From positions 875,501 to 939,500 of the forward strand of contig CM076947.1 of assembly GCA_039566865.1 (NCBI GenBank): a stretch of 64,000 bases of DNA, written 5' to 3'. Made by a program: the position numbers and the translations under genes. Positions 5,971 to 59,080 of this stretch are shown one piece after another. Source of the stretch: Aurelia coerulea (lineage: Eukaryota; Cnidaria; Scyphozoa; Semaeostomeae; Ulmaridae). Below the pieces are notes generated by a model, which saw only the letters and a list, made by a program, of their open reading frames with translations, was not told the DNA's origin and did not search any database. The stretch's first letter is position 1; every line of letters begins with the position of its first letter.

Positions 5971-6007
5971 TGACTTTAGATTTTTTTATATAATCATCAA
6001 TTGGGAG

Positions 6008-8921: not shown

Positions 8922-9953
8922 TTATTCCACATCCTCATAACCTCTTTTTATCGATCTTAACTTTCTTCTTCTCTGATTCCCTTTATCACTGGCCTGCCTC
9001 TGACTGTCATTTACGCGTCTTGAATCTCTCCTTCTAATTCCATCTATCATGTTCTTACCGGGATTTATGCCCAGTTTCAGGAGAACCTTGCAAATTCCTT
9101 TAGCCCCATCATTAAAATTTATTACAGCTGAAGCTGTACCAATTTCCATCGTATGCCTTGAGCAATATACCTGTTTAGGACATTTTTGCCATATTACGCC
9201 ATGCAGAGATTCATTAACATTTTGCGTTTGTCCATGTGTGCACTTTTTCAACAAATCATCATTGCTAAGGTCAGTGAAAACAGGGGTGACAGCTTCTTTC
9301 ACTGCAACTGGCAATGTAATGTGCTCTTTATAGGTAATCTTGCCAGTCTCTTTGTCTGATTGGTACTTGCACCAACTGCCCTTTCCCCTAGGACAATATT
9401 TGTGCCTTTCTGTAGTGTTTGTATGTTCTGAGCAATGAAAGAGTATTGCAATGATTGACTTTTTCATTGCATACACATTATTAACATTTTGCCTTATGGC
9501 CATGCCATAGTAGTTCTGCAAGGCATTTATAACTTTTTTTGTTAATCTTTTCTTTCCAGACAATTTCTTACCATCCGATAACAATTCACCTCTTTTGTGT
9601 GCAACTAGGTTTCACAAACGAGTCCCCATCCTCTTCTGGACGTGACCAACACATCCTAATTTATCTATAGTGCAATTATCATATGGAGCAGACTCCACAA
9701 CACTTTGGTGAGCTTTGGTGTCACCATCCCCAACCAGACATCTAATGCTAGACAGGCCACAGTCATCGCTTTTTTTTTTTTTAGCATTGTTTGTAGCATC
9801 TATGTAAAATTGTATGCAGTTTAGCATTTTTTTTAAACAATGCCATGGGGTAGACATAGACTTTTGCTCCTCGTGGCATCGTCCTTGTAGTATTGTAAAG
9901 TAGTTTGTAGGTAAAGTAGTCTGTAACATTTATTGTAAAATTTTAATTGAAAA

Positions 9954-9988
<35 letters not shown>

Positions 9989-26348: not shown

Positions 26349-26789
26349 ATATAAGATTCAAGATCCAAGATCCAAAGATCCGGAATTCAAGATTCAAAAT
26401 GAAACATCCTAATTCAAGATCCAGAATTCAAGATTCAAAATGAAACACCCTAATGCAAGATCCGGAATTCAAGATTCAAAATGAAACACCCTAATTCAAG
26501 ATCCGGAATTCAAGATTCAAAATGAAACACCCTAATTCAAGATCCGGAATTCAAGATTCAAAGTGAAACACCCTAATTCAAGATCCAGAATTCAAGATTC
26601 AAAATGAAACACCCTAATTCAAGATCCAGAATTCAAGATTCAAAATGAAACACCCTAATTCAAGATCCGGAATTCAAGATTCAAAATGAAACACCCTAAT
26701 TCAAGATCCAGAATTCAAGATTCAAAATGAAACACCCTAATTCAAGATCCGGAATTCAAGATTCAAAGTGAAACACCCTAATTCAAGAA
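26349..26789 (+). repeat. 41-bp satellite, about ten copies
   Basis: Units read aatgaaacaccctaattcaa then gatccagaattcaagattca, repeating every 41 bp (the gaaaca phrase at 26,401, 26,442, 26,483 ... 26,770). Units differ at few positions (ccagaattc versus ccggaattc), and some alternate, hinting at a higher-order 82-bp unit. No ORF and no spacers. Confidence 0.93.
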
Positions 26790-27194
26790 AACATTAAAAT
26801 TATTAAAAAATTGAAAGTTGCTAATCTTTCGTCTTATATCTTGAACCACTTCATTCTCGTAATTACTACTTTTTGACAGCAATTGGATAGGCTGCATGAA
26901 AGAGGATTGAATTGTACCATGCTAGACTCATTTATTTTTATAAGAAACCGCTTATAAGAAACAATAGGCTCAATTTTTCGAAAGTTAAGAGACGACCCTA
27001 CCTGAATTGAAAAAGCTAAGAAACAACTTCTGTAATTTACAATTTAAATTTTCCTATCGCACTAAAAAATGTTTTGACAGCGTAGAGTTATAGCAACTGT
27101 TTGGACAATATTTTGATGTGCAAATTGTGTTATTTACTTGTTTTGAGATCTTACTAAGTAATTTGGGGACCCTTTACTTCCGACATTAGAAATA
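26790..27194. other. No gene recognised
   Basis: AT-rich spacer. Around 26,940 the phrase ataagaaaccgcttataaga resembles aagaaac-type repeats at 40.46, 46.50, 54.70 and 57.98 kb, so an old repeat copy may be present. Confidence 0.4.
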
Positions 27195-27196
27195 TA

Positions 27197-27985
27197 CCGG
27201 GTGTCTCAGAAAAAAGTACCCCCGTTTGACTGGAAATAGGAACCAAGCCATAAGATATCATTGCTCCCCGACTTCAGAGCTAAATTTATCAATTTTCAAC
27301 TTAGATGCACATACCTTGCATTTAAAAATCGTACACCAAACACCGGAGATACAGGTTCACAAAGTCAAAATTTACAGTGCACCCAAAACCAGAGGTTTTG
27401 AAAAAGGGCCTAGTCATGATTTGTATCGTGGACATTTTCCAAAGTACCTGTAGACTTTAAGTTTCCTTGTTTTGTTTTTGAAAAGAATAACAGATGCATG
27501 GACATGGCGCTGATTAAACAAATATAGTCAAAATGTTGTAAGAGTGATAAAGTCGTGCCACATCTCCAAAATAAGCGTGCATGTGCTCCTTTTCCTCTTC
27601 TTTAATACAAAACACTTGGGATCGAATACAATGCAAGGACCGTTACTTCAAAAGAAAGTCACTTCAAGAACAATTGATTTAATTCAATGTATAAATCTTT
27701 TCAAACATGAAAAGTAAAGGTCAAAGTCGAAAATTTGTTTGCAAAATGCCTGTTTGCTGTCAAATTATGGCTAGGCCATTTCTCAAAACCTCTGGTTTCA
27801 GGTGCACTCCAAATTTTGACCTTGTGAACTCATATCTCCCGTGTTTGGTGGTCGATTTCTAAATGCAAGGTATGGGCATTTAAGTTGAAGACCAACAAAT
27901 GTAGCCATGAATTCAAAAAGTCCCGAAATATTATCGTTTTGTTGCCTTGTTGAGTCAAAAGGGGGTACTTTTTTGAGACACCCAG
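27197..27985. mobile_element. TA-flanked foldback element (CCGGGTGTCTCAG family)
   Basis: CCGGGTGTCTCAGAAAAAAG at the left pairs with CTTTTTTGAGACACCCAG at the right; TA flanks both (27,195-27,196 and 27,986-27,987). Arms stay complementary for about 180 bp: accttgcatttaaaaatcg with cgatttctaaatgcaaggt, and caaaaccagaggttttg with caaaacctctggttt. A close relative lies at 38.5 kb. No transposase. Confidence 0.85.
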
Positions 27986-40454: not shown

Positions 40455-40760
40455 TATAAAGAAACCGCTCATAAGAAACTCAACTCTCAGATCGTCAAAA
40501 AATTAATAAGAGATTTCAGTACTGGAAAATGAAAGAAGTCTTGGGCCAGGCCGAAAACACGGAGACGTCGGAGATGTCGGAGATGTCGGAGATGTCGGAG
40601 TTGTCGGAGATGTCGGAGATAATCTCGGAGATGTCGGAGATAATCTCGGAGATGTCGGAGATGTCGGAGATAATCTCGGAGATGTCGGAGATGTCGGAGA
40701 TAATCTCGGAGATGTCGGAGATGTCGGAGATAATCTCGGAGTTGTCGGAGATAGTCTCAG
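40455..40760 (+). repeat. TCGGAGA minisatellite with aagaaac flank, left member of an inverted pair
   Basis: The flank (ataagaaactcaactctcag ...) leads to ggccaggccgaaaacacgga, then units gagatgtcg and gagataatctcg repeated about 20 times. The same flank, the same ggccaggccgaaaacacgga junction and the same two unit types occur at 57,716-58,010 in reverse orientation. So these are inverted repeats of about 300 bp, 17 kb apart, with the kinase-MULE gene between. All frames in the array are open and should not be read as genes. Confidence 0.85.
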
Positions 40761-40774
40761 AAATGTTTCATTTT

Positions 40775-41165
40775 TCATTTTAAATTCATTTCATTTTTTC
40801 ATTTCATTTATTTATAGGAGGGTAACCCTTCAGCAAAGGCTGATTTACAAGGGGCCCTCCGTCAAAAATCTTACAATTTATGGAATATACCTACTATTAA
40901 AATAATTACAATATATGATTTCAAAATGAAAATCTAAAATACAAAATTGTTCTAATTTACAGAAGAAAAAAAAACAAAAAGTGCAAAAAAGAAACATATC
41001 CTAAATTGTTGTTTTAAAACTATTGAGTTTTACGGCTTGCTTCGACTCAGCTGGGAGGCTGTTCCAATATTTTACTCCTCTGAACGAAAAACACCTTTGA
41101 CCATTTCCACTTTTCATTAATGGTATCTTTAGGTCAGTAGAAGTATTTCGGAGGGTGTGAAGGTC
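40775..41165 (-). pseudogene. LINE 3' end, 5'-truncated
   Basis: On the minus strand the C-terminal residues of a LINE ORF2 are readable (CFSFRGVKYWNSLPAESKQA, then VKLNSF), followed by a 3' untranslated region containing ggagggccccttgtaaatca and a repetitive tail (aaatgaaatgaaaaaatgaa) toward 40,775. Typical of a CR1/L2-type insertion that stopped after a few hundred bases. It abuts the minisatellite. Confidence 0.7.
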
Positions 41166-41229
41166 TGGTTATCAGGCTACCTATGATGGTATTTATCCCA
41201 AAGGCTAAATGTTGGAAATGTCGGTTATA

Positions 41230-41780
41230 TCAGCTGGGTTTGTTTTGGGGCAAATTTGGACACGAAGTTTTTGCCTTGGTACCCACCTTAATGATGCAAA
41301 TTTTAGCGAAACTCAACTCCCCTCGCACTGAAAATTCAGCTTGGCGTCTTTGGCGCCCTCTTTGCAAGTTGCCCCCCCCCCCTTCAACTTCGGGCTCGAT
41401 CCCATGTTTATGGAAAATCTGCCGAAAAAAGGAGATGGGCCGGTAAGAGTATCCACCGTCAATGCAAAGCGCATTGCCCAGGGGGGGGGGGTACATGACT
41501 TGAGGATGGATGGGGGTCTGCAGCCCGGTTTTCAGAATGCTTCCCCCTTCTAAGTACCCAGACTTGCTTTTGATACCTACTTTTATGATGAATTTTGGCG
41601 AAAAACTGTCCATTTTAACAATTTTTGCGAATCTCAGCGAAACCCGGGCAAAACCCCACCCTTGTTTATGGAAAATCTGCCGAAAAGAACCCTTTTTTAG
41701 AGAATTTTGGGCCCAAAAACCCACTCATATGGGCGGCACATACCCATACCCTAAATATGTTATGTACCCCCCCCGGGGCA
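41230..41780. mobile_element. CCCAGGGGGGG-ended MITE and a partial relative
   Basis: CCCAGGGGGGGGGGGTACAT at 41,477 and ATGTACCCCCCCCGGG near 41,762-41,777 are inverted ends resembling the hAT MITE at 28.5 kb. The outer 8 bp (gcgcattg / gcacgctg) match only in part. The stretch before it, 41,230-41,470, repeats the interior (atggaaaatctgccgaaaa at 41,409 and 41,668). So a second, end-less copy lies next to it. Confidence 0.6.
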
Positions 41781-42467
41781 CGCTGAAACTACACTGGAGC
41801 GACAACAACTACACCAATTCACATCAATTTGATGAGCGTAAGTTGATGGTCCCTGTGTAGTGAGGCTAGTGCTGCCACGCCACCATGTGCACGCCATCCA
41901 CGCCTTTGATCAATTTAGGCGCGAAAAAGATTACCCAGCTGGATCTTTCCAGGATCGTTAGATGAGAGGTGGACGCCATACATTTGACGAAGGTATGTCT
42001 CTATTTTTATCATTTCTTTAGGTATTTGGCGCTAAAAGCTGCAACTTTACCTGTTACGCTGGGCTGGAACTCAACAGTCAGTAGTTTACATGGAATTTGA
42101 TTTACAACACCCAGTCAATTAGGTAGGCCCATACAAATACCTGTTAGGCCTCAGATTTCCATCCATCATGGCGCGGAGCGCCAGAATATAGAGAAGCCAG
42201 AGCGGAGAGAAATTCTGTTTTGGCCAGAATATGGAGAAAATCTATATAGAACGTACTATTTTATCAAATCTCGTCGTTTGTAGATTTGTAGATAAAGTAG
42301 ATTAACGAGATTAACTTGTTAATTGTAATGTAAATTTTTGTCATGGCCCCCTGCCTGCAAAGTGACCTCTTTGTCGACAGGGTTGCCTGTTAAAATGAAT
42401 GAATGAAAGTATCCATTATTAGACATTTCTATGGCTTGTTTTAGCTGATTTACCATGAGCTGGCTCT
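41781..42467. other. No gene recognised
   Basis: Moderately AT-rich spacer with no convincing frame. The phrase agaatat(a)gagaa repeats around 42,184-42,240. Confidence 0.4.
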
Positions 42468-43198
42468 TTAACCTATTCGTACTGGGGGGGGGGCTTTTTC
42501 GCCCCCCCCCCCCTACCAGACTTTACTGCGTTACGCTAAAACTACAAGAGATATAACCACCAGTTTTGGTGATTTTTACTCAAATTTCATAGGCAATTAA
42601 ATTCTTAACATTTCATTGTTCTACCTCTATCATGTGACCACAGTAATACCATATTTGGAGAGTAGTCAACAATAAAAAACTTAAAATTTCCATAGTTTTC
42701 GTGTCGTTTGCTTGATCGATCTCAAACATGCACCATTCGATTGCATTTCATGATTACTTTCACTTGATATATAAATATTTTTCATATTTGTTGATGTCAG
42801 CAAAATTTTATATCTATGACGTCATTCACATTTATGATGTCATTGCTCTAATAAAGAAGTGTAAAATATAAATTTCTTTAGTCTAATTTGCTTCATCTTA
42901 TTAATTTGATTCATTTTAAGTCTATATTTACCAGATAAAAGGACAGGACTGGCAAAAACCTGCTATGAAAATAAAGCATGCAACAAAAGGCTAATTTAAA
43001 GCTAATTGTGCTAAAAATAGAAACTAAAAAATTGTGTAAAGTATATATTTTTGAACTATGACATGTTTCCTACTATTTGAAAGAAATTTGGAGAAAATCG
43101 GTTGAGTGGTTGATTAAATAGAATTTTTCTGGTTAAGAAGGTATAAATTTGCCAATTTTCCTCAGTTTTTCGGTTGCCTAGCAACGAATCACGTGACT
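42468..43198. mobile_element. TTAA-type element, left end only
   Basis: TTAA-CCTATTCGTACTGGGGG at 42,468 followed by a G-run/C-run hairpin with loop gctttttcgcc. The body contains tgttgatgtcagcaaaat and gacgtcat motifs shared with the copies at 7.7, 12.9 and 19.7 kb. A right end is not visible; similarity seems to fade near 43,190. Confidence 0.55.
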
Positions 43199-43399
43199 TA
43201 TTAATTGTCATTGTTACATTTCAATAGCCAATTGTCTAAAGAACAATAGGGGTAAGACTTATTGTTATATCGTTTGTAGTTTCGGAGAAAAAGAGGGAAG
43301 GTGAAAAACGCCCCCCCCCCAGTACAAAGTACATAAAAAATCGCCCAGTACAGATTGCCTGCAGATAGATGCCTGCTTGTAAATCGTTTTCCTCCTTCT

Positions 43400-43880
43400 T
43401 GTAAAGGAAAAGAGAAATGCACTCAAAATTAGTTTTTCCAAAGTTTTGTTGGATTATGATTTGTAGGAATATACTTTTTAAAAGACATATAATCATTTTT
43501 TGTAATTTAATTTTTTTAAATAATTTTCGTGAAAGACATAAATAAAATACTGGCCGTTTATTGCACATTTTTATCCTGAACAGGCCCGCAGAATATGATT
43601 TCTCCATTTTCTGGCCAAAGAGAAATATACTCAAAAATTAATTTTTCCTAAGTTTGTTCGGATTATTCCAAAGTAAATATATTTTTCCCCATTGCTTTAG
43701 CTCCCTTAGAAAGACAAATAAATAAAAAATCAGCCATTTATCACACATTTCTATCCTGAACAGGCCCCCAGAATGAAATGTCTTCATTTGCTGACCAAAG
43801 AGAAATACACTCAACAATTAGTTTTTCCAAAGTTTTGTTGGATTATTTCGCAGTAAATATGTTTTTTATACCTTCTCTTT
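43400..43880 (+). repeat. Three degenerate ~180-210-bp tandem units
   Basis: ccaaagagaaatayactcaa with attagtttttccaaagttttgttgg..att occurs at about 43,410, 43,615 and 43,797. The phrase atcctgaacaggcccscaga precedes the second and third. The array lies at the 3' side of the minus-strand LINE and does not encode anything I recognise. Confidence 0.7.
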
Positions 43881-43914
43881 AGCTTTCTCTTTATCCACCT
43901 GGGCCTCCTGTGTT

Positions 43915-45900
43915 TTGGGTAGATGATCATAAAAAAGTTAATAATATAATAATATAAGTAATTAAGGGAGTGGAAGGTCGTGAGACCTAAAAAGCCCTGC
44001 TACGTTCTATCACACACGACTAAATCGTGTACGAGAATCTGTCTACGTGTTTTAGTCGATCATATGCTCGTTCAAATTGTTGCACTGTCGAACAGTTGAT
44101 AACCTCGCTTGATAAATTATTCCAGTCATTAATGACCCGTTGCGTGAAAAATTTTTTACGAACGTTTAAGTTACACCTCTTCTTTAATAGCTTCAGTTTA
44201 TGTCCTCTTGTATTGCTTTGTTTCAATTCGAAGAGCAAGGACGGATCAGTGTCCATAAAGCCCTTTAATAGTTTAAAGGTCAGAATCATGTCTCCGCGTT
44301 TTCTTCTGTATTCTAGTGATGGCAGGTCTAATGCTCTTAATCGATCACCGTATGACTTGTCCTTAATCGTTTTTACTAGTTTCGTGGCTCTGCGCTGTAC
44401 GCTTTCAAGCCTTTTGACGTGTTTGATTAGATAAGGGCTCCATATAGCTCCAGCAGACTCCAGTAAGGGTCTAACTAAACTCTTGTATAAAATTAAAAAA
44501 GACTTCTTTATTAATGAATTTGATTGTTCGTTTTATTGACGCGAGGACTCCATTTGCTTTCTTTACGCATTCGGCAACTTGTTTTTCAAACGTAAGTTTA
44601 CTATCTACAAAAACACCAAGGTCTTTTACATCTGCTGATATTGAGATGTTCGTTTCACATTTGTTCTTTTCGTCCTGAACATGATATCTCGGCGATGTGT
44701 CGAGCTGATTGCCAAGATAGAGTACATGGCATTTGTCTGTATTAAGTGGAAGTTGCCACTGTTTCGACCATTTTCCAACATTTGTTATATCCGACTGGAT
44801 TTGGACTTTATTTCCAGCGCTTGATGAATAGAGTTTCAAATCATCAGCAAACATTTTCACTTTGCATTCATCTAAGATGTCAGGTAAATCATTTATGTAC
44901 AGTACAAAAAGTAATGGTCCTAGCACACTTCCCTGTGGTACACCGCTTAATACGTTACTCCAATTCGATTTGTAACCGTTTAGAACGACGCGTTGTTTCC
45001 GATCTATTAGAAAAGATGATATCCAGGCAAGGATCTTTCCGTCAATTCCGTAACATTTCAGTTTGAGTAATAATCTTTCATGTGGTACCGAGTCGAATGC
45101 TTTCGCAAAATCAAAATAGATAACGTCAACGCATTTTCCTTGATCTAACAATGAAGTTACTTCTTCAAAAAATTCGAGTAGTTGCAATACGCAGGATCTT
45201 TTGCAACGGAATCCGAATTGATCAGGTGAAAAAAGGTTATGTTCGTCTAAATGATTTACGATACCGTTTTTTATTATTCTTTCCATCACTCTACATATAA
45301 TCGAGGTAAGGCTAATCGGTCTATAGTTTTCTCTAGCATGTTTGTTACCTTTCTTGAATATAGGGGAGACATTGGCTAATTTCCACGTGTTGGGAAGAAC
45401 CCCTGTGTCAAGGCTACTTTTGAAAATTAAATGCAATGGATGGGCGATGACATCCGCAGTTTCTTTTAGTACTCTAGGATGTATGTTATCTGGTCCAGGA
45501 GATTTCGATGTATTCAGAGATTTAATTATCTCGAGAATCGCTTCTTCACTAATTTCAACATTGGCTAAGACAGAACAACGATTGGAATTTGTTACGTTTG
45601 GCAGGCTTGATAAATCTTCTTTTGTGAATACTGAAGTAAAGAACTCATTTAAGATATCGACTTTCTGTTGTTCCGAGGATGTGTAAGAATTATCATCAGT
45701 TTTCAAATCAGGTACTTTTGACTTTGTTTTTAATTTAGAATTTGCATACTTCCAATATTTTTTGCTGTTCGATTTTATCGTAGTAGCGATGTTTTTCTCA
45801 AACTCCTTTATCTTTTTGCGAACTTTTGACTTTATATTGTTTGAATGTCTTTTAAACCTGTCGTAATCTTTTCCTGTTTTTGTTACAAACAATATAAATA
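43915..45900 (-). pseudogene. CR1-like LINE ORF2: reverse transcriptase and C-terminus
   Basis: Copies LINE RNA into DNA at a nicked site. Frame from 45,892 to 44,471 (473 codons): SLNTSKSPGPDNIHPRVLKE, GNKHARENYRPISLTSIICR, DFAKAFDSVPHERLLLKLKC, LSGVPQGSVLGPLLFVLYIN and FADDLKLYSSS are RT motifs 1-5. A shift near 44,480 leads to LVRPLLESAGAIWSPYL and a second frame ending at 44,020 (TQRVINDWNNLSSEVINCST). The endonuclease is missing because the copy is 5'-truncated near 45,900. A taatataataatata tail lies near 43,945. The CR1/Jockey-group call comes from the motif style. Confidence 0.88.
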
Positions 45901-47043
45901 TAAACCAGTCTTGGGTGGCCTTTTCAAATTTTTATCCCCAGCTTTGTCTGGGTCACCTACTGAGGCCGGGGTGAAACCCTCACCCAAAGTTTGGAAAGCC
46001 TCAACTCTGGGGTTGCAAAGTGCTTGAACAGAAAATGCATTACCATCTCAATTGTCCAAGGGGGTTACTGGTATATGAAATGGGCTACTTTTTTCTGTAT
46101 AAACCTTTTCCAAGAATTGTTGTTGGGGTCATATGATTACCAAATTGAAATCAAGCAACATTTACCAAAATCAAAATATTTAACTATCTAAAAATGTATA
46201 ATGTGAAGTCTACAAGTAGGGCAATTTTCCATAGATGCAAACATAATTTTTGAGTATCCACATATTTCTTTGAGAATTGCCTGAAATAACAGACTCATCA
46301 TATCAAACCCATAAATGCAACACAAATATTGTAATCTCTAGAAAGGAGACTATTAACTCATGTGATCATGTAGAACAACAACAACCAACTGCAACTGCAA
46401 CTGCAACCTGCAACTAGAGGGAAAATCGTTTAAATCTTGCAAAAGAGAAAAAGAAGTTAATCTCAAGAGCTGAAAGGAAAGAAATAATAAAAAACGGAAT
46501 TATAAGAAACTCTTCTCTAAGATTGCCAAAAATCAAGGAACTTCAGTGCTTGGAGAATATAATAACTTATCTTGTTAGTTCCAGATTATTTTGATAAAGA
46601 AAATTTGTCACATACTGTATTTTACTTTAGTTTTACTTATTTTTTCTGTGTCATATTACTTGACAGGTGCTTGAGTAATGCCTAAAAAGTGGAAGGGCTT
46701 CAAAAACCTTTGTTTTAAATGTTCATGAGGGCAAAAGTAGTTAACATTCAGCTCGAGTCCCCCCTCCATGGGCCCAAATGATACTATATCCATATTGGAC
46801 TCCCTGTGGACAAAAGTATTCCCTTAATTGCGGAAGCCATAGCAACAGGGTTTCAAAAGCCATGTGCTTAATGGTGTATGGCCTGGCATATTCAGGTTTT
46901 CAGTGATTGTTTAACAAAGTGATTTCTTCAATTAATGAATTTTCAAGTCCTTTTCCATGTGTGCTGGCAATTCTTCTTGTTTAAGTCCACTTTGGCCACT
47001 TCGTCCGTCCTAGGGTTCTCAAAGTGTTTTTCTTCTCAATCAG
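45901..47043. other. Upstream region of the kinase-MULE gene; no gene recognised
   Basis: Should hold the promoter and any 5' untranslated exon of the gene at 47,044, which starts right after acceptor-like cttctcaatcag. 46,386-46,415 is a tgcaac hexamer run. 46,495-46,740 shares two phrases with 54,580-54,760: aagaaactct..caaggaacttcagt and taatgcctaaaaagtggaa. They lie on the same strand but in reverse order, so the gene is bracketed by related repeats. Confidence 0.45.
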
Positions 47044-50000
47044 ATGTTCAAATTTCCACAACTCATCCAGAAGAGGCCTCAGCCTAAGAAAACACAAAGG
47101 TCTTTACAAGGCATTCCATGTTTCGTTTATGATGACATCAAGAAGGAACATCTAATTGGAGCTGGGTCTTATGGCAAAGTTTTTAAGGCCAAGCATGACA
47201 GCAAGGATGTCGTATTGAAGGAGCTTGATGATGTTGAGGAAAAAGATTTGATTAAGGAAGCTAAGTTCCATAATGAACTGTCCCACCCCAACGTCGTAAA
47301 ATTCTTCGCCATCTGCAAGGAACCAAAAGCTCTGATGCTTGAATATGTCTTTTTCAACATGTCTCCATTTGGTGGGCATGATAGAATTTCCAGTCTTGAT
47401 GGCTTGCTGTTGGAACTCGACAAGATGCATTTTGCTGGATTTGAGCATTTGGTACCAAAAATTGCAATGGGTATAATAGCTGGCCTTCACTTTCTACACA
47501 ACAAAGGAGTCGCCCATAGGGATTTGAAACCAGGGAACATTCTTGTGAGTAACCAGCACCTTGAGGATTGCAAGACGCAAGAACAACGAGTGCTGATATG
47601 GAGAGACAACCCATGTGTCGTCAAACTCACAGATTTTGGTGAGAGTTGGGGTACGATCTGTCAAACTGCTGCAGTAGCTAAATCTCACACTGTCAATATA
47701 TACAAAGGCACTCCTGCCTTTATGGCTCCTGAGGTCCTGGACCCAAAAAAACGACCCACAGAGATGAAAGTGGAACAACTTATGCTTGCAGACATATGGA
47801 GCCTCTCAATGGTTTTTTTCTGCTTGGTCAATCCCAACCTTAAGGTTCCATTTTTTAAAGAAGCACGGGAAACTGGTAATGTTCGCAATTGGCAAAACTT
47901 CCTCATTGAAAAAGTTTCAAGCGGCTCAATACCATCCGGAGAAAATTCCTATGATCATTTGAAAGCTACCAGCTGGATCCAAGTCAATGAGGCTTTTAAA
48001 CTTGGTATTCAACAGAAAGCAGACAAGCGTCCAAGCTTACAAGACCTAGATTGCATATTAAAGAAAACAAATGATTCATCATCATATCCTTTAGCTGTCC
48101 ACCAAGGCACTGCCCTTGAAAATGCCTTCCCATTTGGAGAAGAAGGAGACTTTCAAGAGCCAAAGAATGACGGGACAAATGCTTGCACCTTTCTTGCTTG
48201 CAAGTTCACTGAAACCATCCTGAAGAAGGGCTTTACTGACTGGCAGAGCCTTGCTAGTGATGTGGAGCAGATTATCAGAGAATTTCCAGTCTCAGTTAAT
48301 AAGATTCGTGACAAGGGAATCAATTATGACATACCAACAGCATATGAACTGATGCACAAAAGCGGACTTATTTCAAAGTTGAAGTTCGCTGAGAAGGGCT
48401 GTGGCCATTCTGTTTTCTCTGATTCTGGAAGAGAAGATCTATTGCAGCTCCTAACAAGGATGGACAGGGCCGCTGTTATGACTGTTCCCCCATATACGTT
48501 TCTGATTGGAAGGAAAGACCAAAATTACTACCTAGTAGACTCCCATAGCATTGGACCAGAGTGTGATGGTAATGGAATGGGAATTCTAAAGGTTTTCACA
48601 GATGCTCATACAATGGGGAGATGGCTTTGGAAACGATTGCACATATGTGGAATAAAGAAGGAGCGGCAACAAATGTTTGAAGTTGCCCTCATATGTAGAG
48701 AGAGTGACCAAGAAGATCATGTAATGATAGTTGATTCATCTGAAGAAAATGACATGAAAACGGACGCAAGTAACAGAAGTGCAGAAGATCTGAGGAGTGT
48801 TGCATCAATTTCCCCAATGAAACCATTGACGATGAGCGCCAGTAATTCAACTGCAGAGGAAAATATTGAAGTTGCAAAGTCATGTTGGATGACTGACTTT
48901 TCAAATCCGGCTAACTGGAAAGAGAGAGAACAAAGCAAATGGGGACCCTATGGATTACCTTACATCTCAACACAAGATAGTAAACTCAAATTTTCGGAAC
49001 AGTTAGCTGTCATCAAGGCTCGCTTGCCAAAGGCCGTCAGGATCCCACAAGGATGCAGACGAAATGCTATTTTCATCATCGACAGCCAAAATGTGAAACA
49101 CCTCAGTGATATTCAAAGTGATTTAAATGGAGTTTTCAAGAAATGTTTGGAGATAAAGCGGTATGTGGTTGATGTTTCTAGGAGCGCAACTGGTAGTCAG
49201 AATGTGAAGGTCCATAGAGGAAAAAAAGAATTAGGACCAGGGCAACTTTACTTGCAAGTGAATCGAAAACAAAACGAGTTTGGTCTCACGCGGGATATTT
49301 CTTACCTACTTGACAACGAAGGGAAAGTATTTGAAAACTCAGTTGTGCTTCAATACATTGTGAACAAGAACATCTGTGGTGACGTTGAAGAGGTATCATA
49401 CAAGGTTGCACAACACGGAAATGCCAAAGGAATTGCATGTGGCTCTTTTCATCCACTAAAGAAAAGCACTCTGAAAAGATTACGAGATGAGACATGCTCC
49501 AATGCAAGGATGTCGCATGCTAATTTTGAAGCTGGCGAAGACTTCGGTGATATACCACGGTCCAAAAAACAAATCAGCGACCTTGTAAGATCTAACCCAC
49601 ATAGGAATCATGATAGTCCTGCAAACGAGGTTGAATCTATCTTAGCATATGATGAAGAGCTGCAAGAAGACAGAATTGTGTGGAGCCATTCAGACATACC
49701 TGAAGACTTGTGGGTGTTGGGGACAAAACGAATGTTGAATGATCTATCCCATGCAGAAGGAGGTCAGCCCATTTCCATTGACCCTACATTTAACCATGGC
49801 AAGTTCGAAGTTACCCCAATCACCTATCGCCACCAATCTATTATGGCAAAATCTAAAAACATAGCTGGTCAGTGGAATAATGCAATCATGCTTGGTCCAA
49901 CCATAGTTCATCATGGCAAAAGTGACGAAACATATGACCGGGCCCTCAAAGAAGTATGTCGAAAGACGAAGCTCACAGCAAAGAAAATTGGTATTGTGAC

Positions 50001-50642
50001 AGACGGCGAACAGGCTTTGATCAATGCCTGTAAGGCCAACTTACCAAAGTCTGTTCGTATGAGGTGTACGAAACATTTCCGTGAAAATTGTCAAGAGTAC
50101 CTGCGATCTATTGGCATCAAGAGTGACATATCGCAGGCACCGTTCTTAGAAGCAGTATTTGGCGAGAATGGTTTGGTTGAGTCTACTGACAAAGTAGACT
50201 TGGAACAAAAACTGAAAGAAAAATCAAAGATTCTTGATGAGATGGAGACAGAAGTTTTAGGAAGAGCCGAAGGGAAGTTCTCAGCATTTTTGCAGAAAAG
50301 GGAGAAGACCGTTTTGAGACAAATGATCCAAGGAAGAAGGAAGAAAGGAGGGATGCCTATAAATGCCAATGGTGTACCCTATCGGGTGTACACCAATCAG
50401 TCAGAGAGCATAAACTCTATGCTTGCTGCAAAGAAGCAATCATTAGGTTTCACTAAAAAGGATGACTTGTCCAAAGCACAATTTATTTGCAAAGTGTGGG
50501 AAGCAGTGGTATCAGAACAGAACCAGGAAATTGAGCGTGCACTGTATGGGCAAAGTGAACGCTTTCGACTGGCAGATGAAGCGGATTATTTGAAGGTAGA
50601 AGTAGAAGAATGGTACAACTGGAGTGCAACGAAGAGGAAACG
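47044..50642 (+). CDS. Kinase-peptidase-MULE transposase fusion, exon 1
   Basis: 1,199 codons plus two bases. Residues 35-340: complete protein kinase, with GAGSYGKV 39-46, VVLKE Lys59, HRDLKPGN 158-165, DFG 197-199, APE 228-230, Asp250 and Arg329, so probably active. Residues 360-550: Cys-peptidase-like, NDGTNACTFLA (Cys381) and YYLVDSHS (Asp499, His501), the Cys..DxH order of C76-type deubiquitinases; weak fold evidence. Residues 905-1200: MULE DDE core, SIDPTFNHGKFEV (Asp913), GIVTDGEQAL (Asp987), RCTKHFRENCQEYL, TNQSESINSML (Glu1121). The terminal TAA is in fact a donor (aaacg|gtaagt), giving a phase-2 join to 52,011. No stop or frameshift. Kinase plus transposase in one protein is, to my knowledge, not a described architecture. 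Confidence 0.85.
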
Positions 50643-52010
50643 GTAAGTTTTATATTTTAAGATTATACATTTGTCTAACCTCTATGATTGAATCAAAAAT
50701 TGCTGCATGAGTCACGTAACAGCTCCCACAGACATGACTTTAGTTACTCAAATTTTCAGCATGTTGAGTGAGCAAATTCGTGCATGGTTGGAAATTTTAT
50801 TTATTATGATCAATTTGGAGAGGGACACTTCATACCTTTCATAACGGATTTTTCTTCTTCCTATAGGCTTATTTCTAGTTGGTGGAATTTCCCAAAAGGG
50901 CGGAATTTTGCACAACAAATGGTTCCTCAGCCGTTCCTTTCTATTCAATTTGAGAGCGACATTTTCTCTTGTGAACAATAGAATTTCCACCCGCTCGGAA
51001 AATCCACTGGCTGTAAATCAACAGTAAATGAGTTTTTTTGCTGAAATACATATGTCAGCATTTTAAACAGTAGGCTGAAGAATAAGTTGCCTTTCTTTTG
51101 CATATTTACAAGCCCAAAAGCATGCTGGTAACCTTTTGAATTACATTTAGCTGCCGAGAGGCTCCGTAGACAATCCAAGGAAAGTTATTTCTGCGGCAAA
51201 ATTGAGGTGTATAGGTAACAGAGTACCCCTGAATAAGTTTCAAATCGATGTCAATTACTATTACGTTTTCCATGGCAAGTCTATTTCAAAGCCTGTCCTT
51301 TTTAAGATTTCTGGAGTCTATCAATTCACAGTCACTGAATCTTGCGTTGTGTATAATCTGTACTCATCAGATGTTATTTGATGCATTGACTGTGGTTGTT
51401 TCGTACAAAGATTTAGAAGATTTTTCCGACACCCATGCACATAACCAAGCAAAGAAATTTAGTCTTTAGGAGATTGTTCTGCTGAAATTTCCACATTTTG
51501 CACTATCCATTTTACCATTGTATGCCTTCGACGATTTTTGTCCAAGAAAATCGCAATCTGGCACACTGTGGGGCGGTGCTAACGTGTAAAATTATGAAAA
51601 ATGAAATGAGAAATGAAATTATTTACGTAATTGAAAGTCCTAAAATATAACTCATTGGAAGTTGTGCTTCTAGAAGCTAGCTGTTCTAGTAGCATTCTCT
51701 GAAGTGAAAACTAATTATGGCAGTAGTTCCTTGGACCCCAAACTCAAGATTTTTTTAATCAGGATGTCAATTTTCTTATATCTTTAAAAGAGTTTGACAA
51801 ATTTCTGGTATGTCCAATTCTCAGATCATGCTAAATATTAGGCCGAGTCATGTTCAAACATAAATTCCAGATGACTCTGTCTTGGTCGTGTAAGTGTGTA
51901 CGTGTATGTGTCGATGGAAGCATCAATGTGAACAAATGGAAGTTACTACTATTTGCAACGCTTGATCTGAGCACGAAAATCGTTTCTAAAGCTTTTACTA
52001 TCTTTTGTAG
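50643..52010 (+). other. Intron 1 of the kinase-MULE gene
   Basis: Runs from gtaagt to tcttttgtag. It contains no recognisable element; the phrase tggtggaatttcccaaaag is flanked by AT-rich sequence. The splice is supported by exact reading-frame continuity (cg|c, Arg) and by the family layout, in which transposase core is followed by a SWIM finger. Confidence 0.6.
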
Positions 52011-52343
52011 CTATTTTGAAGAATTTAGTAAACTTTCAATTGATGATGTTAAAAGCAGAAAAGCCGTACACGCTGAAGTCTGTGAAGCAGAATTTCCCGA
52101 AGCAGTGATGAGGATCGATAACTTGGCAGTGGACCTACAAAGTGAATTACCACGAATATTTCATGCAGCAACAATACAAAAGAAAGCACTGCAACTGCTG
52201 AATAGCAAAGAATCTATTGTCTTATACCCAGCGTTAGAGGTGCAAGAGAATTGCAAGCAATTTATGGTGGCAGGCTTTGCAGGCCAATTTCATGTTGTAA
52301 AGATACGTCAGACTAAAGTAACATGTGACTGCAAAGGATTCAG
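52011..52343 (+). CDS. Kinase-MULE gene, exon 2 (first half of SWIM finger)
   Basis: 333 bases, 111 codons in phase. YFEEFSKLSIDDVKSRKAVH, a helical linker (AVMRIDNLAVDLQSELPRIF), then VVKIRQTKVTCDCKGF with the first two ligands of a SWIM finger (CxC). The donor (ttcag|gtaagt) splits an Arg codon. Exons 1-3 sum to 4,518 bases, exactly 1,506 codons, which supports the splice choices. Confidence 0.78.
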
Positions 52344-52987
52344 GTAAGTTCTAAGAACTTTTCTCTTCTGACCTTGAACCCAATGGACAATTCTAAAATT
52401 GATACTTTTATGGTGCCAAGATCATGTGGTAGGAAATTCTGCTGAAACAAATGTTTTGGAAAAAACTGTTGCATAAGTTTTCCTGGTAGAAGAGGTGTTG
52501 ATTTTGCTCCTACTACGTGGTGTATTATAAATTAAATGATGAGTACTTACATTACTGTATGCAAATTGCATATCATCAGAAAGAAGACAGATTGTACTTT
52601 CAGGCCGCGTACATCAAATCTTCTCAAATTTTATCAATTTGTAGGGTAAGGTAGGGGTAATTTGAGTCTAAAATGGGCATTTTTGAAAATAAGCAGAGTA
52701 CCCTCTTGGAACACCTTTGCTGATTTGCCTTGTTTCGCGATTTTCACCCTCTCTCCCCCTCAAAACGATGTTGTATTTTGACGACAAATGAGGACAGGGC
52801 AATTTCGCGACTTTGATGAAATGCTAGGAAATTAACCGTGCAAGTTAGTGTCGTTTTTGGGGGAGGGGATGCTTCAACTAATCACCATGGATTGAAATTG
52901 CGGGAAAGTGTGTCATTACCAAGATATAGCCTAAGTGTTCCTAGGACCTTTGGCAGGCATTGTATGTTATTGATGTCTCCGTTACAG
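52344..52987 (+). other. Intron 2 of the kinase-MULE gene
   Basis: Runs from gtaagt to tccgttacag. AT-rich with a short G-run region near 52,860. Nothing coding. The position between CxC and CxH of the zinc finger is unusual and diagnostic for this gene. Confidence 0.6.
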
Positions 52988-53573
52988 GTTTGCAAAGATT
53001 TGTAGCCATTCAGTCGCAGTGGCCAACCGAGAAAATATTCTGCCTGCTCATGTCAAAGGAGTCCGTGTTGGATACAGATCCTCAATCACCTATCCACAAG
53101 ATGCCAAAGGAGCCGGGAGAAAAGGTGGAAGAAATCGCCGGTCAAGAGTGTACTTATCTCGACCAAAGCAGGATGACATTGATCACGGTTCCACGTCCCC
53201 TTTCAGTAAAGTGTGGCACAACAATGAGCCATTGATCATTACTAGCATCAAGGAAGTACCAAAAGAAAAAAGCAATTGCAAATATTGTGGAAATGAATTC
53301 CCCCGTGGTAAGCTGTGTATCATTCCATTTGATGTAGTGATCAGCCATAAAGAAAGATGGGAATACCGCAACCCAAATAAGGATCCAAAGGAGCCAAAGT
53401 TTCTCAAGTCACCGTATGGAAAGTATACAGTAAATTACTACTGCGTAAAGCGAGAATGTATCCAAGGAAGGTTCCCTTACTTCATCCCAGCCCTACTGGA
53501 AGTTTCAGTGGGCTTGAATTTGCATGCTGGTCATAAGAAGGTACTCAAAGAACAGTTAGACTTGCAGTTATAA
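52988..53573 (+). CDS. Kinase-MULE gene, exon 3 (SWIM end and Cys-rich C-terminus)
   Basis: Continues the SWIM finger as FAKICSHSVAVANRENILPA (CxH ligands), giving CDC...CSH across the splice. Then a basic Gly/Arg tract (KGAGRKGGRNRRSRVYLSR) and a second metal-binding-like segment (NCKYCGNEFPRGKLC, later NYYCVKRECIQG). It ends at TAA 53,571-53,573. MULE proteins commonly carry a SWIM finger after the catalytic core for DNA contact, so this completes a full-length transposase. No 3' repeat signal recognised; a foldback element begins 250 bp downstream. Confidence 0.78.
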
Positions 53574-53827
53574 CTCATTTTTTTGTAGCGCAAATGACAG
53601 CTTTTGTTAGTTTCAATGTTTTTGTTGTTATGTGGATGTTGAACATCATTTTTGGAGCCCGACACGCATTGTTTTACCTAGGGTGGGCACTTCACTGTCC
53701 AGTCAGATTGTGATGTGCGCCTGTTTTGTGGTAGTTTTTCGTACGAAAATTCTTGCAATGGAATACACGTATTTTTTATCCAAAACTAAGAAACTCCAGT
53801 ACTGGGAGAACGCAAGTTAAGAAGCTA

Positions 53828-54522
53828 CTGGGTGAGTCAGAAAAAAGAATCCCCGTTTGAAAGGTCACGGCTCCCTGGACATCAAGAGAATGATGTCGGC
53901 AAATGTATAGTTTAATGGTAGAAATGTTCAAATCTACTATAAAGTCTACCTAACTGAAATCGGCCACTCCATTCTAAAATTATGAGGGATTTTCTCCAGA
54001 AAGCCTCTTCAAAAAACCTTCAAAACGTGTCCAAAATCATGAACAAATTTCCCTAACATTTCTGCCTTACAATGGCCTTACAGCAATGACTTGTGGACAC
54101 TTTAAGCACGTGCTATCCTCTTGGGAGGATGAACAAGTTCTCCCCCTGGTATCGATGACTTATTTATTCAGGGGGATTCCATTCTCCCAAGAGGACAAAA
54201 TACATGAATTTATGTGAGTGTCATCATTCATTGTTTTCATTGGTTTTGCATGTTTTTGGAAGGGGCTTTCTGCAGAAAATCACCCGTATCCACGGGAAGG
54301 AATGGCCGATTAAGGCCGGGTAAATTACTGAACCTAATTATTGAACATATTAGCATTGGCAATATGCTCGGAGATTATATAGCAATATAGCATTAGCAAT
54401 ATATCTAAGATATTGGCAATAAATCAAGACAGTTTTCAGTATTATTGCTTTGATATTCATGGATCTTTTAATCCACAAGAAGTGGCCTTCCAAGCGGTGA
54501 TTCTTTTTTCTGACTCACCCAA
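53828..54522. mobile_element. TA-flanked foldback element (CTGGGTGAGTCAG end)
   Basis: CTGGGTGAGTCAGAAAAAAG at the left and TTTTTTCTGACTCACCC at the right, with TA outside both (53,826-53,827 and 54,523-54,524). Inner arms pair partly (aaatcggccactccattc with gaatggccgatt). The core has its own hairpin: tcctcttgggag near 54,115 with ctcccaagagga near 54,195. Fourth member of the family in this window. Confidence 0.82.
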
Positions 54523-54904
54523 TATTTACTTTGAAAAAGGAAATCCTTGAAATCTTTCACTTTGCTTTCACTTGTTGCCTGTATCATGTTACTCGTAAGA
54601 TACTTCAGTAATGTCTAAGCATTGGAAAGGCTCAAAAAATATTGCTTTGAAATCTTCACGTGGTCACAGGTAGCAAACATGAAGATTGTTATGGAACCCC
54701 TAAGAAACTCGTAAGAAACTCTGAGTACTCAAACTCTAATGATTTTAAGGAACGTTCAGTACTGGCCCAAATTCTTCGTTTCTTATCTCAGTGGGGCAAA
54801 ATTCACGAAACATGACCCATAACACGAGAAAAATATCGCAAATATGCCCATAACCCAGGCAGGCCCAATATAGGAGTTACCCCCCCCCCCCCCCGGTTAG
54901 GAAG

Positions 54905-57118
54905 TATAATAATAATAATAACAATAATAATTTATTTATTTACAGTTGGTGGAGGCAATAGTTTTAAAGAAAACTAATAAATACCAACTATTTACACTAC
55001 AAAGTTCAAATATAATAAACGTAAAATAAAAACATGAATCTATGTACACATCATCTGCAGATGTTGCAACTGCAAGTGTCTCCTTTCCAGTTCTTAATCA
55101 TATTTTTGAATTGCTCTGTGTTTTGAGCAGCTTTTATCGTGTCAGATAACGTGTTCCACAAAATGCTTCCTCTGAATGATAAAGAATTGTTCCCATAAAC
55201 TAATGTATTGGTTTTAGCAGTGACGCATTTACCCATGGGCCCACTGGGCCTGGGCCCAGGGGCCCCCTAGAATTCTTAAATCTAGGAGGCCCCGAGCAAA
55301 ATTTGAAAACACCTATGAAGTGCTGTTGATTTCACTCTTGTATTTGAAATGATTGTTAAAAAGCCTCTCGAAAAGTTCATCGATAAAAGGAGGAATCTCG
55401 TTGATACCGAAGCTGAAGTCCATAAAAAGAAAGAAATGGAAGAGGCGACAACCCCATGAAACACAAAAGCCTATTTTGGATAATCTATTAGAGCAAATTG
55501 TGAAAGGAGATGAAGCTGCAACTTCCCAAAGGCAATTACCGCACATAGATTGTTGCTCAATGCAATGACCGCACTTTGCCATGCAGAGTTTCCTCCAGTG
55601 AAAGAAGTTTCTCCATGCTGAAAGGGTCAAGAGTCAGGTGTCAACTAAGGTCCACAATGTCACAAGAGCGCGTTGTTGCCTTTTGCCTAATGAATGGCAG
55701 CAAATTTTGATGTCCCGAGTCACGAGGGGGGGGGGGGATTGCCCCCACTTTGTCCAAAGCTGGGTATAGGTTGGGAAAGAACTTTCTGAGAAATGTCAAA
55801 ACTTCCATTTTAGCACTGGCATTTTGTAGGATAACCATCACAAAATATCAAATTTTTCTTGTCGCTGATGGCAAGCATGATATCAGGAGATGCATTCTAA
55901 GCCAAAGTAAAGGGCGTAGCCCCACAAATTTTCTGGGGGCTTCGCCTCCAGGCTCTTCATTTGGTTCCCCTCATTTAATTTACCCTGGCCACGCCACTGT
56001 CGTGATGTTTTTAGACCCCAGGAATATCATCCGAAATTTTGCAGCAGTGAAGGCAAGACGAAAATCATGAAAAACCATTGGACAAGGGGAGTTTTCTTGG
56101 GATTGTACGGACATGTATATATCTGTACAAGTTTACTCATTTCTTCGAGTTTTCCACTTTCAAAATGTTTAGTTAATATTAACCTGTTTGGCTACGGCTG
56201 AATCTGGTGGCCTTATCCATACATGGCATACATGCTAACAGGGTATCGCGAGTACTATGATACAACTTTTTTTAGGTATATTCTAAGGGGCCCCAACCAG
56301 TTTTGGGCCCAGGGCCCCAACAGACTTAAATGCGGCCCTGGGTTTTAGGGAGCTGCAGGAGGTTATTTGTTCGTAGGTCATATTGAATGTCCTTTGGTGT
56401 GAAGAACTCAAACATGAAGGAGGGGCAAGCCGCATTTATGCATTTATATATTTCAAGCATTAGTTTTTGCAAATTTTTGCAGTGGATCGTTAGCTCACCC
56501 GACCTTCTCAAGAGATCTTCAAACGATGCATCATAGTCACTATACAGAACTCTCAGTGCACGTTTGTGCAAACGGTTGATTGTGTTGTTTGCAGTCTTCC
56601 CACAGAACATCCAAATTAACGGGCAGTAGTTGAAGTTTGAAAGATTAAATGCATGGTAGAGTATTTTGGCCTTGTCTACATCGAGATATCGTGCAATCCG
56701 AGAAAAAGCCCCTGTTTTCTGATTCATCTCTTTACAAATGTGTGTTACGTGATCCCGAAAATTCAACTTTGAATCAATCGTAACTCCTAAGAGCTTTACC
56801 GTGTCTGCATTGACTTTAATGTTTCCATTTATGTCAAGACAGTATCTTTTGCTCTCTTTGAGACCAAGAAACATCATTTGAAATTTATCCGGGTTTGCTA
56901 CCCTGTTGTTTTCCCTAAACCAGGAGATTGCATTTTCAATATCAAACTCAAGACATGCGATTACTTCCTCAACATTTTTGCCACATGCGAATACCGTGTT
57001 ATCATCAGCAAAATTGCATACCTGGGAGCTCTGTATAGCGAAAACAAAGTCGTTGATGAATATATTGAACAATAAGGGCCCAAGGATTGAACCTTGAGGA
57101 ACACCAGACACTGTGCAC
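54905..57118 (-). pseudogene. LINE ORF2 fragment interrupted by a hAT element
   Basis: Minus-strand RT frame 57,111-56,326: MSGVPQGSILGPLLFNIFIN, FADDNTVFACG, VKLLGVTIDSKLNF, IARYLDVDKAKILYHAF, with the C-terminal tail after the hAT insert (55,236-55,051: NNSLSFRGSILWNTLSDTIK, then CSCNICR and stop). Excising 55,218-56,340 with one GGTTTTAG joins LPKT to NTLVYG and makes one frame. 5'-truncated at about 57,118 (only RT motif 4 onward). 3' tail is an AAT-type microsatellite at 54,907-54,935, usual for CR1/L2-like LINEs. Confidence 0.85.
55218..56340 (+). mobile_element. hAT element relic, 1,123 bp, 8-bp duplication GGTTTTAG
   Basis: Ends CAGTGACGCATTTA and (complement) CAGGGCCGCATTTA, flanked by ggttttag at 55,210-55,217 and 56,341-56,348. 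Subterminal regions are G/C-rich (gggcccaggggccccc). A piece of a plus-strand hAT/ZMYM-type transposase survives near 55,585-55,720: SSSERSFSMLK, a short insertion, then LRSTMSQERVVAFCLMNGS, the C-terminal dimerisation region. An internal deletion removed most of the transposase. Confidence 0.85.
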
Positions 57119-57457
57119 TAAAAGTACTGTTTATCTTGACCCTCTGTTAAGTAATATCGTTAATCTGTTTTGTTAGTGATAAAACTAAATTATATACTGT
57201 TTTCCGTTTTTACAAGGATCATTTCCATAGAAGTAGATCATATCATATCGAAATCTACAAAAACTGTTCTTTTTCTTGGCGTTTCTTCCGATAACAACAT
57301 TTATGTTCATTTTCAATGGATAATTTTTCAGATTTATGTTCTTTTTTTATTATATTTTTCAGATTTTGCAGGTTTCGCAGGTTTTACAAATCATGTTAAT
57401 TTCAAAATTTCATATTATATTTCATACTTCATTCTTTTAAGTTTTCAAGGGGCCCTC
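57119..57457. other. No gene; probable LINE 3' sequence
   Basis: AT-rich. The boundary phrase aaggggccctc at the right end matches acaaggggccctcc in the 3' untranslated region of the LINE at 40.8 kb, so a related LINE tail lies here and continues beyond the small MITE. Confidence 0.4.
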
Positions 57458-57594
57458 TAGACTTGCCCCAAGTCTGTTTTGTCAACTGTAATAAGTCTAC
57501 CGGAAAGTATATTACAAAACAATTTCGCTCTTCACTTTTCCCTTCAATTTTTTTGACGAATTCTTTTTGACGAAATAGACTTGGAGCAAGTCTA
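57458..57594. mobile_element. 137-bp MITE with 9-bp duplication GGGGCCCTC
   Basis: TAGACTTGCCCCAAGTCT and its near-complement AGACTTGGAGCAAGTCTA are the ends; ggggccctc flanks both sides (57,449-57,457 and 57,595-57,603). A 9-bp duplication is the usual length for Mutator transposases, so this could be a non-autonomous partner of a MULE such as the one 4 kb away. That link is only by duplication length. Confidence 0.8.
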
Positions 57595-57715
57595 GGGGCC
57601 CTCCGATAAAAACTTGATTACAATATACAGATTTAAAATTCACTAAAAAACCATTATTTTAAATGCCTATTTACAATCATATTAAGTGGGTACCAAGGCA
57701 AGATACAAATTATCC

Positions 57716-58010
57716 CAAATTTCTTGACATCTCCGAGATTATCTCCGACAACTCCGAGATTATCTCCGACAACTCCGAGATTATCTCCGACATCTCCGAG
57801 ATTATCTCCGACATCTCCGACATCTCCGAGATTATCTCCGACATCTCCGAGATTATCTCCGACATCTCCGACAACTCCGACATCTCCGACATCTCCGACG
57901 TCTCCGTGTTTTCGGCCTGGCCGAAGTCTTGGCACATTCTTTTAAATAACGCTTCTTAAAATTATCAGAGTTGAGTACTTGAAGTTTCTCACAAGAAGTT
58001 TCTTAAAGTC
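57716..58010 (-). repeat. TCGGAGA minisatellite, right member of the inverted pair
   Basis: Read on the minus strand from 58,010: taagaaacttcttgtgagaa, acttcaagtactcaactctg, then ggccaggccgaaaacacgga and gagatgtcg/gagataatctcg units to 57,716. This parallels 40,455-40,760 in order and orientation outward to inward. Arms agree best at the ggccaggccg junction and in the array; the outer 90 bp has diverged. Confidence 0.85.
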
Positions 58011-59080
58011 TCAATCAATGAAAATTTCTACAGTGACTAGATACCAGTGCCATTGTGGATATTCAAAACAAAATTTTTAAAGCCTTTCCAATAATTTTTA
58101 GACATTCAATTCAATTACCTTCCGATAGCTATTACCCTATATAGGGTGATATAGCAAACAAGTGAAAATAAAATAAAACTATGCTGAGGATTTCCTTTCG
58201 TATTAATAGTTTCTTAAGTTATATCAGGTCTGTTCTTTTTGCAAAAACCTATCACACTCTACCACAGTATACCTAGGTCGACCTGGAAGCACTATTGGTC
58301 ACGACAAAGAGTGTTTGACGCCAGATCAAATTCGAAAATTCCAGATCGAATTCGAAAATTCGTGCAAGTGAAAACGCTGATGGGCAAGAAGATTCATCCG
58401 AGAAGATATGAAGCTTGAGCTTTACGAAGAAAGAGTTTCAAAAATTTTACGGGGAAAATAATTCAACCATAGCCTGAAAGAATTTAAATTCGTATGGTTT
58501 ACATGGTTTCTTTTTGTAGCCAGCGCCATCAACGTACAATTTCCCTCAATTTTATCGATTCATACATGTCAGACCGGGCAGACATTCACAACACGAAATT
58601 TCGCTCGCCAACTTGAAATTGAACTGAAAATCAACACAGCATCTTATAGTTGGCTTCTTCAAAACAAACATAATTTTCTTTTGTAACAAAGTTAAACGAA
58701 CAAGGAACAATAAAAGATAGTGTGTCTTTTCCATATGAATATTTGTACTAAGCTCCATCAAGAAACAGTCCACAGTTGGGAAACTTGATGAAGATGAGGA
58801 GGCATCACTACCTAGGCGCCAAAAAACATCCTTAAGTCTTTGTGGTTCTCTGCAAGAAATTTTCACGCAGCAAATATCTGGGAATAAAAGCAATGCTGTG
58901 AAGAAACTTACCAATGTTTTATTAGGACTTGCTTGCATTTTATTTATCTGTTTCTTCATTTTATTCTTGTGTATTGAAAGCGTTCTTGTGAGTTCTTGAA
59001 AGGCAGTGATTTCTCGCTCGAAAATCGATCAAAGAGAAAAAAATTTCGTGCCGACGCCAGATCGAAGACTTGCTTGGATT
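58011..59080. other. No gene recognised
   Basis: AT-rich spacer. 58,318-58,360 carries two units of the 20-bp gaattcgaaaattccagatc repeat that is amplified at 59,081, preceded in both places by gacgccagatc. The two loci therefore derive from one repeat. Confidence 0.45.

What the first reader, a model, noticed from the sequence alone, without database searches (positions are those of the whole stretch)
47044..53573. A protein kinase, a Cys/DxH peptidase-like domain, a MULE transposase and a SWIM finger in one gene
Seen: one 3,603-bp frame with every kinase signature residue and, 700 residues later, a MULE core with D913, D987 and E1121. Two further exons add a SWIM finger split by an intron, and the three exons total exactly 1,506 codons. 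Known: MULE cores followed by SWIM fingers are standard; kinases fused to them are not, to my knowledge. Inference: the transposon carries its own phosphorylation and perhaps deubiquitination activity, possibly to evade host control or time transposition.
Basis: partly seen in the sequence, partly recalled or inferred. Interest (0 to 1): 0.92.

Follow-up and report, generated by a model that had tools for sequence, protein, structure and literature searches.

The report
Transposon fusing kinase, deubiquitinase and transposase
A jumping gene encodes one protein that joins a cut-and-paste transposase to a protein kinase and to a domain that looks like the ubiquitin-removing enzymes of herpesviruses; relatives with the same order exist in other invertebrates, so it seems a real and undescribed kind of transposon, though its activities are untested.

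The parts
40535..40543 (.). left copy of the 9-bp target-site duplication GAAGTCTTG
40544..40766 (+). left terminal inverted repeat, starts GGCCAGGCCGAAAACACGGAGACG, mostly a TCGGAGATG-type minisatellite
40544..57922 (+). whole MULE-type element, 17,379 bp, with two reverse-transcriptase ORFs inside
47044..50642 (+). exon 1: kinase, VTD-like domain, linker, MULE N-terminal region and DDE core
47134..48063 (+). protein kinase domain, residues 31-340
   Evidence: Pfam 5.7e-33; residues
48076..48723 (+). viral tegument-like deubiquitinase (VTD-like) domain, residues 345-560; Q354, C381, D499, H501
48709..48939 (+). Ser/Thr- and acid-rich linker, residues 556-632 (17 S/T and 15 D/E of 77)
   Evidence: least conserved part in the two closest relatives
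48940..49623 (+). conserved MULE N-terminal region, residues 633-860, function unknown
49624..50642 (+). MULE DDE core, residues 861-1200 (last codon split by intron 1); D913, D987, C1008xxH1011, E1121
50643..52010 (+). intron 1, GT-AG
52011..52343 (+). exon 2, ends inside the SWIM finger
52344..52987 (+). intron 2, GT-AG
52988..53573 (+). exon 3: rest of SWIM finger and conserved C-terminal region, stop codon
57726..57922 (-). right terminal inverted repeat
57923..57931 (.). right copy of the 9-bp target-site duplication GAAGTCTTG

Best explanation
This is the transposase gene of a Mutator-like (MULE) DNA transposon whose transposase carries, at its N-terminus, a protein kinase and a viral tegument-like deubiquitinase. 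Shown by sequence and models: the four-domain order, its conservation, the element's ends, the intact catalytic residues and the predicted folds. Inferred: all three enzymes work. The MULE core with its SWIM finger binds and cuts the terminal repeats. The deubiquitinase removes degradative ubiquitin chains from the transposase, or from proteins bound to it at the element ends, as Erven et al. propose for Helitron VTDs. The kinase phosphorylates the same complex, most likely the Ser/acid-rich linker, to switch transposase activity or stability with the cell's state. Kinase and deubiquitinase probably form one functional unit, because they are also found together in reading frames that have no transposase part.
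Confidence: 0.55

Rival explanations
1. The kinase-VTD unit acts in trans on host proteins (silencing, DNA repair or cell-cycle factors) and the transposase merely carries it; it is an on-board counter-defence or repair-signalling module rather than a regulator of the transposase itself.
For: Kinase-VTD occurs without a MULE part in the same frame in 77 clusters, many ending shortly after the VTD domain; these may be separate proteins, or exons followed by an intron. Plant MULEs can carry anti-silencing proteins (VANC; passages of PMC6446971). Ginger authors suggest that Ulp1 and OTU domains act on repair factors (passage of PMC2836005).
Against: In the fused clade the unit stays in cis over deep divergence (down to 34% identity), with one unfused row inside that clade in each tree, which favours action on or near the transposase.
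Confidence: 0.3
2. The Cys/DxH domain is not a deubiquitinase but cleaves another ubiquitin-like modifier (UFSP2 and ATG4 also use Asp-x-His), or another protein as YopT-type proteases do.
Confidence: 0.2
3. A host gene: a kinase gene that captured a transposase, or a domesticated transposase, not a transposon gene.
For: Some database gene models of relatives bear host kinase names (TAO1, mitogen-activated protein kinase); [quoted passage not shown]
Against: TIRs and a 9-bp TSD enclose this copy; the same order recurs in diverged proteins with the transposase catalytic residues intact.
Confidence: 0.07
4. Chance fusion, pseudogene or assembly artefact.
For: Only one copy seen here; the MULE Pfam match is below cutoff.
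Against: An identical 1,200-aa frame in a Logan contig (P0002; possibly from the same raw reads) and 14 diverged fused relatives; exon joins fit collinear relatives.
Confidence: 0.01

Closest known systems
Mutator-like elements (MULEs), as surveyed by Dupeyron et al. 2019 (PMC6446971)
   Same: MULE core, SWIM finger in many groups, TIRs, 9-bp TSD in many groups; one cnidarian element (MuDR-6_HM) is listed with an Ovarian Tumour (OTU) gene
   Different: that text has no occurrence of 'kinase', 'protease', 'ubiquitin' or 'tegument'; this family adds a kinase and a VTD-like domain
Viral tegument-like deubiquitinases (VTD), Erven et al. 2022 (PMC9741609)
   Same: predicted fold; Cys then Asp-x-His at similar spacing (118 here; 129 and 121 from the residue numbers of DrT1-VTD2 and Wc-VTD1); transposon setting
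   Different: the transposon VTDs described in the passages seen are in Helitrons; the text has no 'kinase', 'MULE', 'Mutator' or 'MuDR', though it says cnidarians have VTDs fused to transposon-associated domains, which could include this family
Ginger1 and Mutator elements with Ulp1 or OTU domains (PMC2836005)
   Same: a transposon protein with a cysteine protease of the ubiquitin/SUMO system
   Different: other protease classes, C-terminal in Ginger1; no 'kinase' in that text
ISCth4 transposase (IS256 family: recalled)
   Same: best fold match of the DDE core
   Different: bacterial, without these accessory domains (recalled)
Rehavkus elements
   Same: 9-bp TSD and a minisatellite near one end (PMC6446971); here the minisatellite is in both TIRs
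   Different: they have a PHD finger; none found here

Membership tests
MULE (Mutator-like) transposon | RNase H-like DDE core with D, D, E and CxxH between | tested here: met
   D913, D987, C1008xxH1011, E1121; best fold match ISCth4
MULE (Mutator-like) transposon | Pfam MULE model above its cutoff | tested here: inconclusive
   22.8 bits against 27.6 for the query; precomputed PF10551 is listed for the 87% relative P0003
MULE (Mutator-like) transposon | SWIM finger downstream of the core (common, not universal) | tested here: met
   PF04434 19.6 bits at cutoff 19.6; 29.5 bits in relative P0009
MULE (Mutator-like) transposon | TIRs with 8-11 bp target-site duplication | tested here: met
   9-bp GAAGTCTTG and ~200-bp TIRs
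MULE (Mutator-like) transposon | mobility (several copies, empty sites) | not tested
   The genome search gave no answer in 10 tries
VTD deubiquitinase | papain-like fold closest to M48 / VTD structures | tested here: met
VTD deubiquitinase | Cys with a C-terminal Asp-x-His (and upstream Gln) | tested here: met
   15 of 15 in the fused family; C/D/H 66 of 73, Gln 68 of 73 with 5 gaps, in the wider set
VTD deubiquitinase | significant sequence-profile match to a known VTD | tested here: inconclusive
   8ADB is the top PDB sequence with the wider profile but E 0.17; fourth, E 1.1, with the narrow one
VTD deubiquitinase | cleaves ubiquitin | not testable with these tools
   needs purified protein
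eukaryotic protein kinase | Pkinase model above cutoff and catalytic motifs present | tested here: met
   114.9 bits against 31.7; residues; best solved relative TAK1, E 3.4e-13
eukaryotic protein kinase | phosphotransfer activity | not testable with these tools
   needs assay
Rehavkus | PHD finger in the transposase | tested here: not met
   no PHD hit up to E 1 in P0001 or exons 2+3
Pack-MULE | host gene fragment inside MULE ends without a transposase | tested here: not met
   transposase is present with D/D/E

The most novel reading that the evidence does not exclude
An undescribed lineage of animal MULEs encodes a self-regulating 'signalling transposase': transposase, kinase and deubiquitinase in one polypeptide, with kinase and deubiquitinase as a co-inherited unit that reads and rewrites phosphate and ubiquitin marks on the transposition complex. 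Herpesviruses also carry both a VTD-type deubiquitinase and their own kinase (the kinase is recalled), so this would be a transposon parallel to that pairing.
Probability: 0.4. Interest if true: 0.9.

Novelty: new variant of a known kind. Interest (0 to 1): 0.8.

Why it matters
In the papers I could see, no transposase is reported with its own protein kinase. If active, this is a transposon that controls two host signalling marks from one protein, a testable system for how elements resist degradation and time their jumps. It would add a second transposon superfamily with the herpesvirus-type deubiquitinase, which bears on where the herpesvirus domain came from. It also suggests that some database proteins named as kinases (a sea cucumber 'TAO1', two EukProt records) are transposon proteins.

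Tried and rejected
Assembly artefact or chance fusion: rejected. Recent capture of a host kinase (Pack-MULE style): rejected, since fused relatives go down to 34% identity and lie on one side of a well supported branch. Smaller inner transposon: no closer TIR pair found; of 16,035 / 4,761 / 1,480 exact 8 / 9 / 10-bp pairs that enclose the gene, 1 / 1 / 0 had 15 or more of 20 TIR bases; the 8-bp case is a 15/20 match of a T-rich stretch (35431 to 59639); controls 0 of 13,521 / 3,906 / 1,190, one reversal of the right part only. A dispersed repeat of 66-71% identity flanks gene and element, but the copies next to the gene are direct, not inverted. OTU/Ulp1 identity of the Cys domain: no Pfam hit in the query; among 14 members 3 families matched by 1 member each, best E 0.024; this does not exclude a distant relation. 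Sequence-only link to solved VTDs stayed non-significant. Two-gene elements (kinase-VTD gene beside a MULE gene) among unfused relatives: not testable; a third protein search listed 61 MULE-type proteins and, comparing the printed longest-contig lengths by eye, I saw none shared with the kinase-VTD list, which proves nothing. Three viral-contig scans found no relative. One search listed 120 of 142 hits; the other 22 were not seen. Host species: not identified. Named sources among the hits are sea cucumbers, a sea urchin, a nemertean, a hydrozoan, octocorals, stony corals and a mussel, plus a diatom, an ostracod and a plant among the weakest kinase hits; that the 'Seg' records are moon jelly is recalled.

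Literature searches: (all 10 allowed). Seen of each paper: PMC6446971 abstract, passages, section 8; PMC9741609 abstract, passages, Discussion part 1 of 2; PMC2836005, PMC12062965 and PMC10027918 passages only; no supplements. [quoted passage not shown] Repbase itself was not searchable.

Full report
Observation. ORF 47044-50646 is 1,200 aa. Ten GT-AG splice combinations near the expected sites stay open; 50642|52011 with 52343|52988 has consensus-like sites and gives 1,505 aa plus stop. The joins fit relatives: P0009, P0014, P0015 and P0016, the four of the 15 aligned rows that extend through the SWIM finger to a C-terminal end, run through both junctions at 34-43% identity over exon 2 and 39-46% over exon 3; 4 of 4 keep the SWIM cysteines and histidine and end near our stop. 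P0009 is a database gene model and may itself be spliced. 10 of the 15 rows begin M-F-x-F/L-P, so the start codon is also likely right.

Relatives. A search of about 5.8 billion proteins gave 33 hits at E <= 1e-5. One (P0002) is this same sequence from a Logan contig. Profile scanning of all 153 proteins held by then (P0001 and the hits) gives 16 with kinase, VTD-like and MULE parts (query and P0002 included), 77 with kinase and VTD-like domain but no MULE part, 17 with MULE parts only, 42 with kinase alone or kinase with a stray MULE match, and 1 with VTD-like stretches only. These proportions mean little: each search admits only proteins of 0.55 to 1.75 times the query's length, the second list was cut at 120 of 142, several clusters are near copies, and a frame without a MULE part may be an exon. 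P0013 lacks part of its kinase, P0011, P0015 and P0016 start late, P0010 has a duplication, and P0010 and P0012 end inside the core. Named sources of fused proteins are Holothuria leucospilota (P0009, named TAO1 kinase) and two EukProt 'Seg' records (P0010, P0013).

Conservation. In the 15-row alignment (query included) Q354, C381, D499 and H501 are in 15 of 15; K59, D160 and D197 in 13 of 13 rows that reach them; D913 in 15 of 15, D987 in 14 of 14, E1121 in 13 of 13. P0004 has Gly for D250 and P0014 has DYG for DFG. In the wider set C/D/H is complete in 66 of 73 VTD domains longer than 170 residues; the exceptions are five with Glu for Asp and two with Asn for His, and one of the latter, P0067, is closest (54%) to fused P0009. 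The kinase K/D/N/D set is complete in 105 of 110 kinase domains longer than 270 residues and above 150 bits, the other five being gaps. For the two closest relatives identity is 87 and 85% in the kinase, 82 and 80% in the VTD-like domain, 72 and 62% in the linker, 94 and 91% in the core, which suggests that the enzymes, not only the transposase, are being kept. dN/dS was not computed, as no DNA of relatives was to hand.

The kinase. Its best solved sequence relatives are TAK1 entries (E 3.4e-13); only the best 60 of 1,155 were shown, so I draw no closer kinship.

The element. Both ends of a 17.4-kb stretch carry the same inverted repeat of about 200 bp, mostly a TCGGAGATG-type minisatellite after the start GGCCAGGCCGAAAACACGGAGACG, directly flanked by GAAGTCTTG on each side. 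Of 4,761 exact 9-bp repeat pairs that enclose the gene, one has 15 or more of 20 inverted bases, and it has 20 of 20; with the right part reversed, 0 of 3,906. Nine bases is the length most often listed in the part of the MULE table that I saw (PMC6446971). Two reverse-transcriptase ORFs (44471-45892 and 56326-57111, minus strand) lie inside, probably later insertions, so the original element was probably shorter.

How it probably works. Shown: anatomy, ends, conservation, predicted folds. Inferred: activity and purpose. Kinase and VTD-like domain are found together both with and without the transposase, which suggests that they serve one task. In the fused lineage they stay tied to the transposase, which makes the transposition complex the likeliest substrate: ubiquitin removal would protect it from the proteasome, phosphorylation (perhaps of the 77-residue linker with 17 Ser/Thr and 15 Asp/Glu) would gate it. 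Action in trans on host silencing or repair proteins remains a serious rival.

Known or new. Ubiquitin/SUMO-type proteases in transposons are established: Ulp1 in Mutator elements, OTU or Ulp1 in Ginger1 (passages of PMC2836005), OTU in a cnidarian MULE (table in PMC6446971), VTD in Helitrons (PMC9741609). A kinase fused to a MULE transposase, and a VTD in a MULE, appear in none of the passages seen; the word 'kinase' has no occurrence in the main text of four papers, and 'MULE', 'Mutator' and 'MuDR' none in the VTD paper, which does say that cnidarians have VTDs fused to transposon-associated domains. My ten searches cover only openly licensed papers; Repbase and supplements were not seen, and a bulk screen of UniProt (PMC12062965) may hold members in its table. 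I therefore call it a new variant of a known kind.

Noticed in passing
window 8922-10670, minus strand: A second, different Mutator-type transposase: Pfam Mutator (PF20700) at 5e-37 and 4.7e-10 over two separate ORFs, probably decayed or with an intron.
   Followed up: no
window 44471-45892 and 56326-57111, minus strand; 15697-16668, plus strand: Reverse-transcriptase ORFs (RVT_1); the first two lie inside the 17.4-kb element and are probably nested insertions.
   Followed up: partly
window 40456-40537, 46487-46747, 54526-54756, 57948-58198: An old dispersed repeat (66-71% identity between copies) lies on both sides of the gene in the same direction, and also just outside both ends of the element, the right outer copy inverted. 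Unexplained.
   Followed up: partly
window 53819-53868 and 54482-54531: Inverted pair just downstream of the gene, with further matches at 27186-27229 and 23060-23101; looks like a small MITE.
   Followed up: no
P0017 (protein): A MULE core that falls on the fused side of the tree but whose N-terminus has no kinase or VTD match, only a weak C2HC zinc-finger match (E 0.039), as if the front module had been swapped.
   Followed up: partly
P0010 (protein): A fused relative with the kinase and the start of the VTD domain duplicated; may be real or a gene-model fault.
   Followed up: no
window 6006-6712 and 26375-26788: A roughly 350-bp tandem duplication and a 41-bp tandem array.
   Followed up: no
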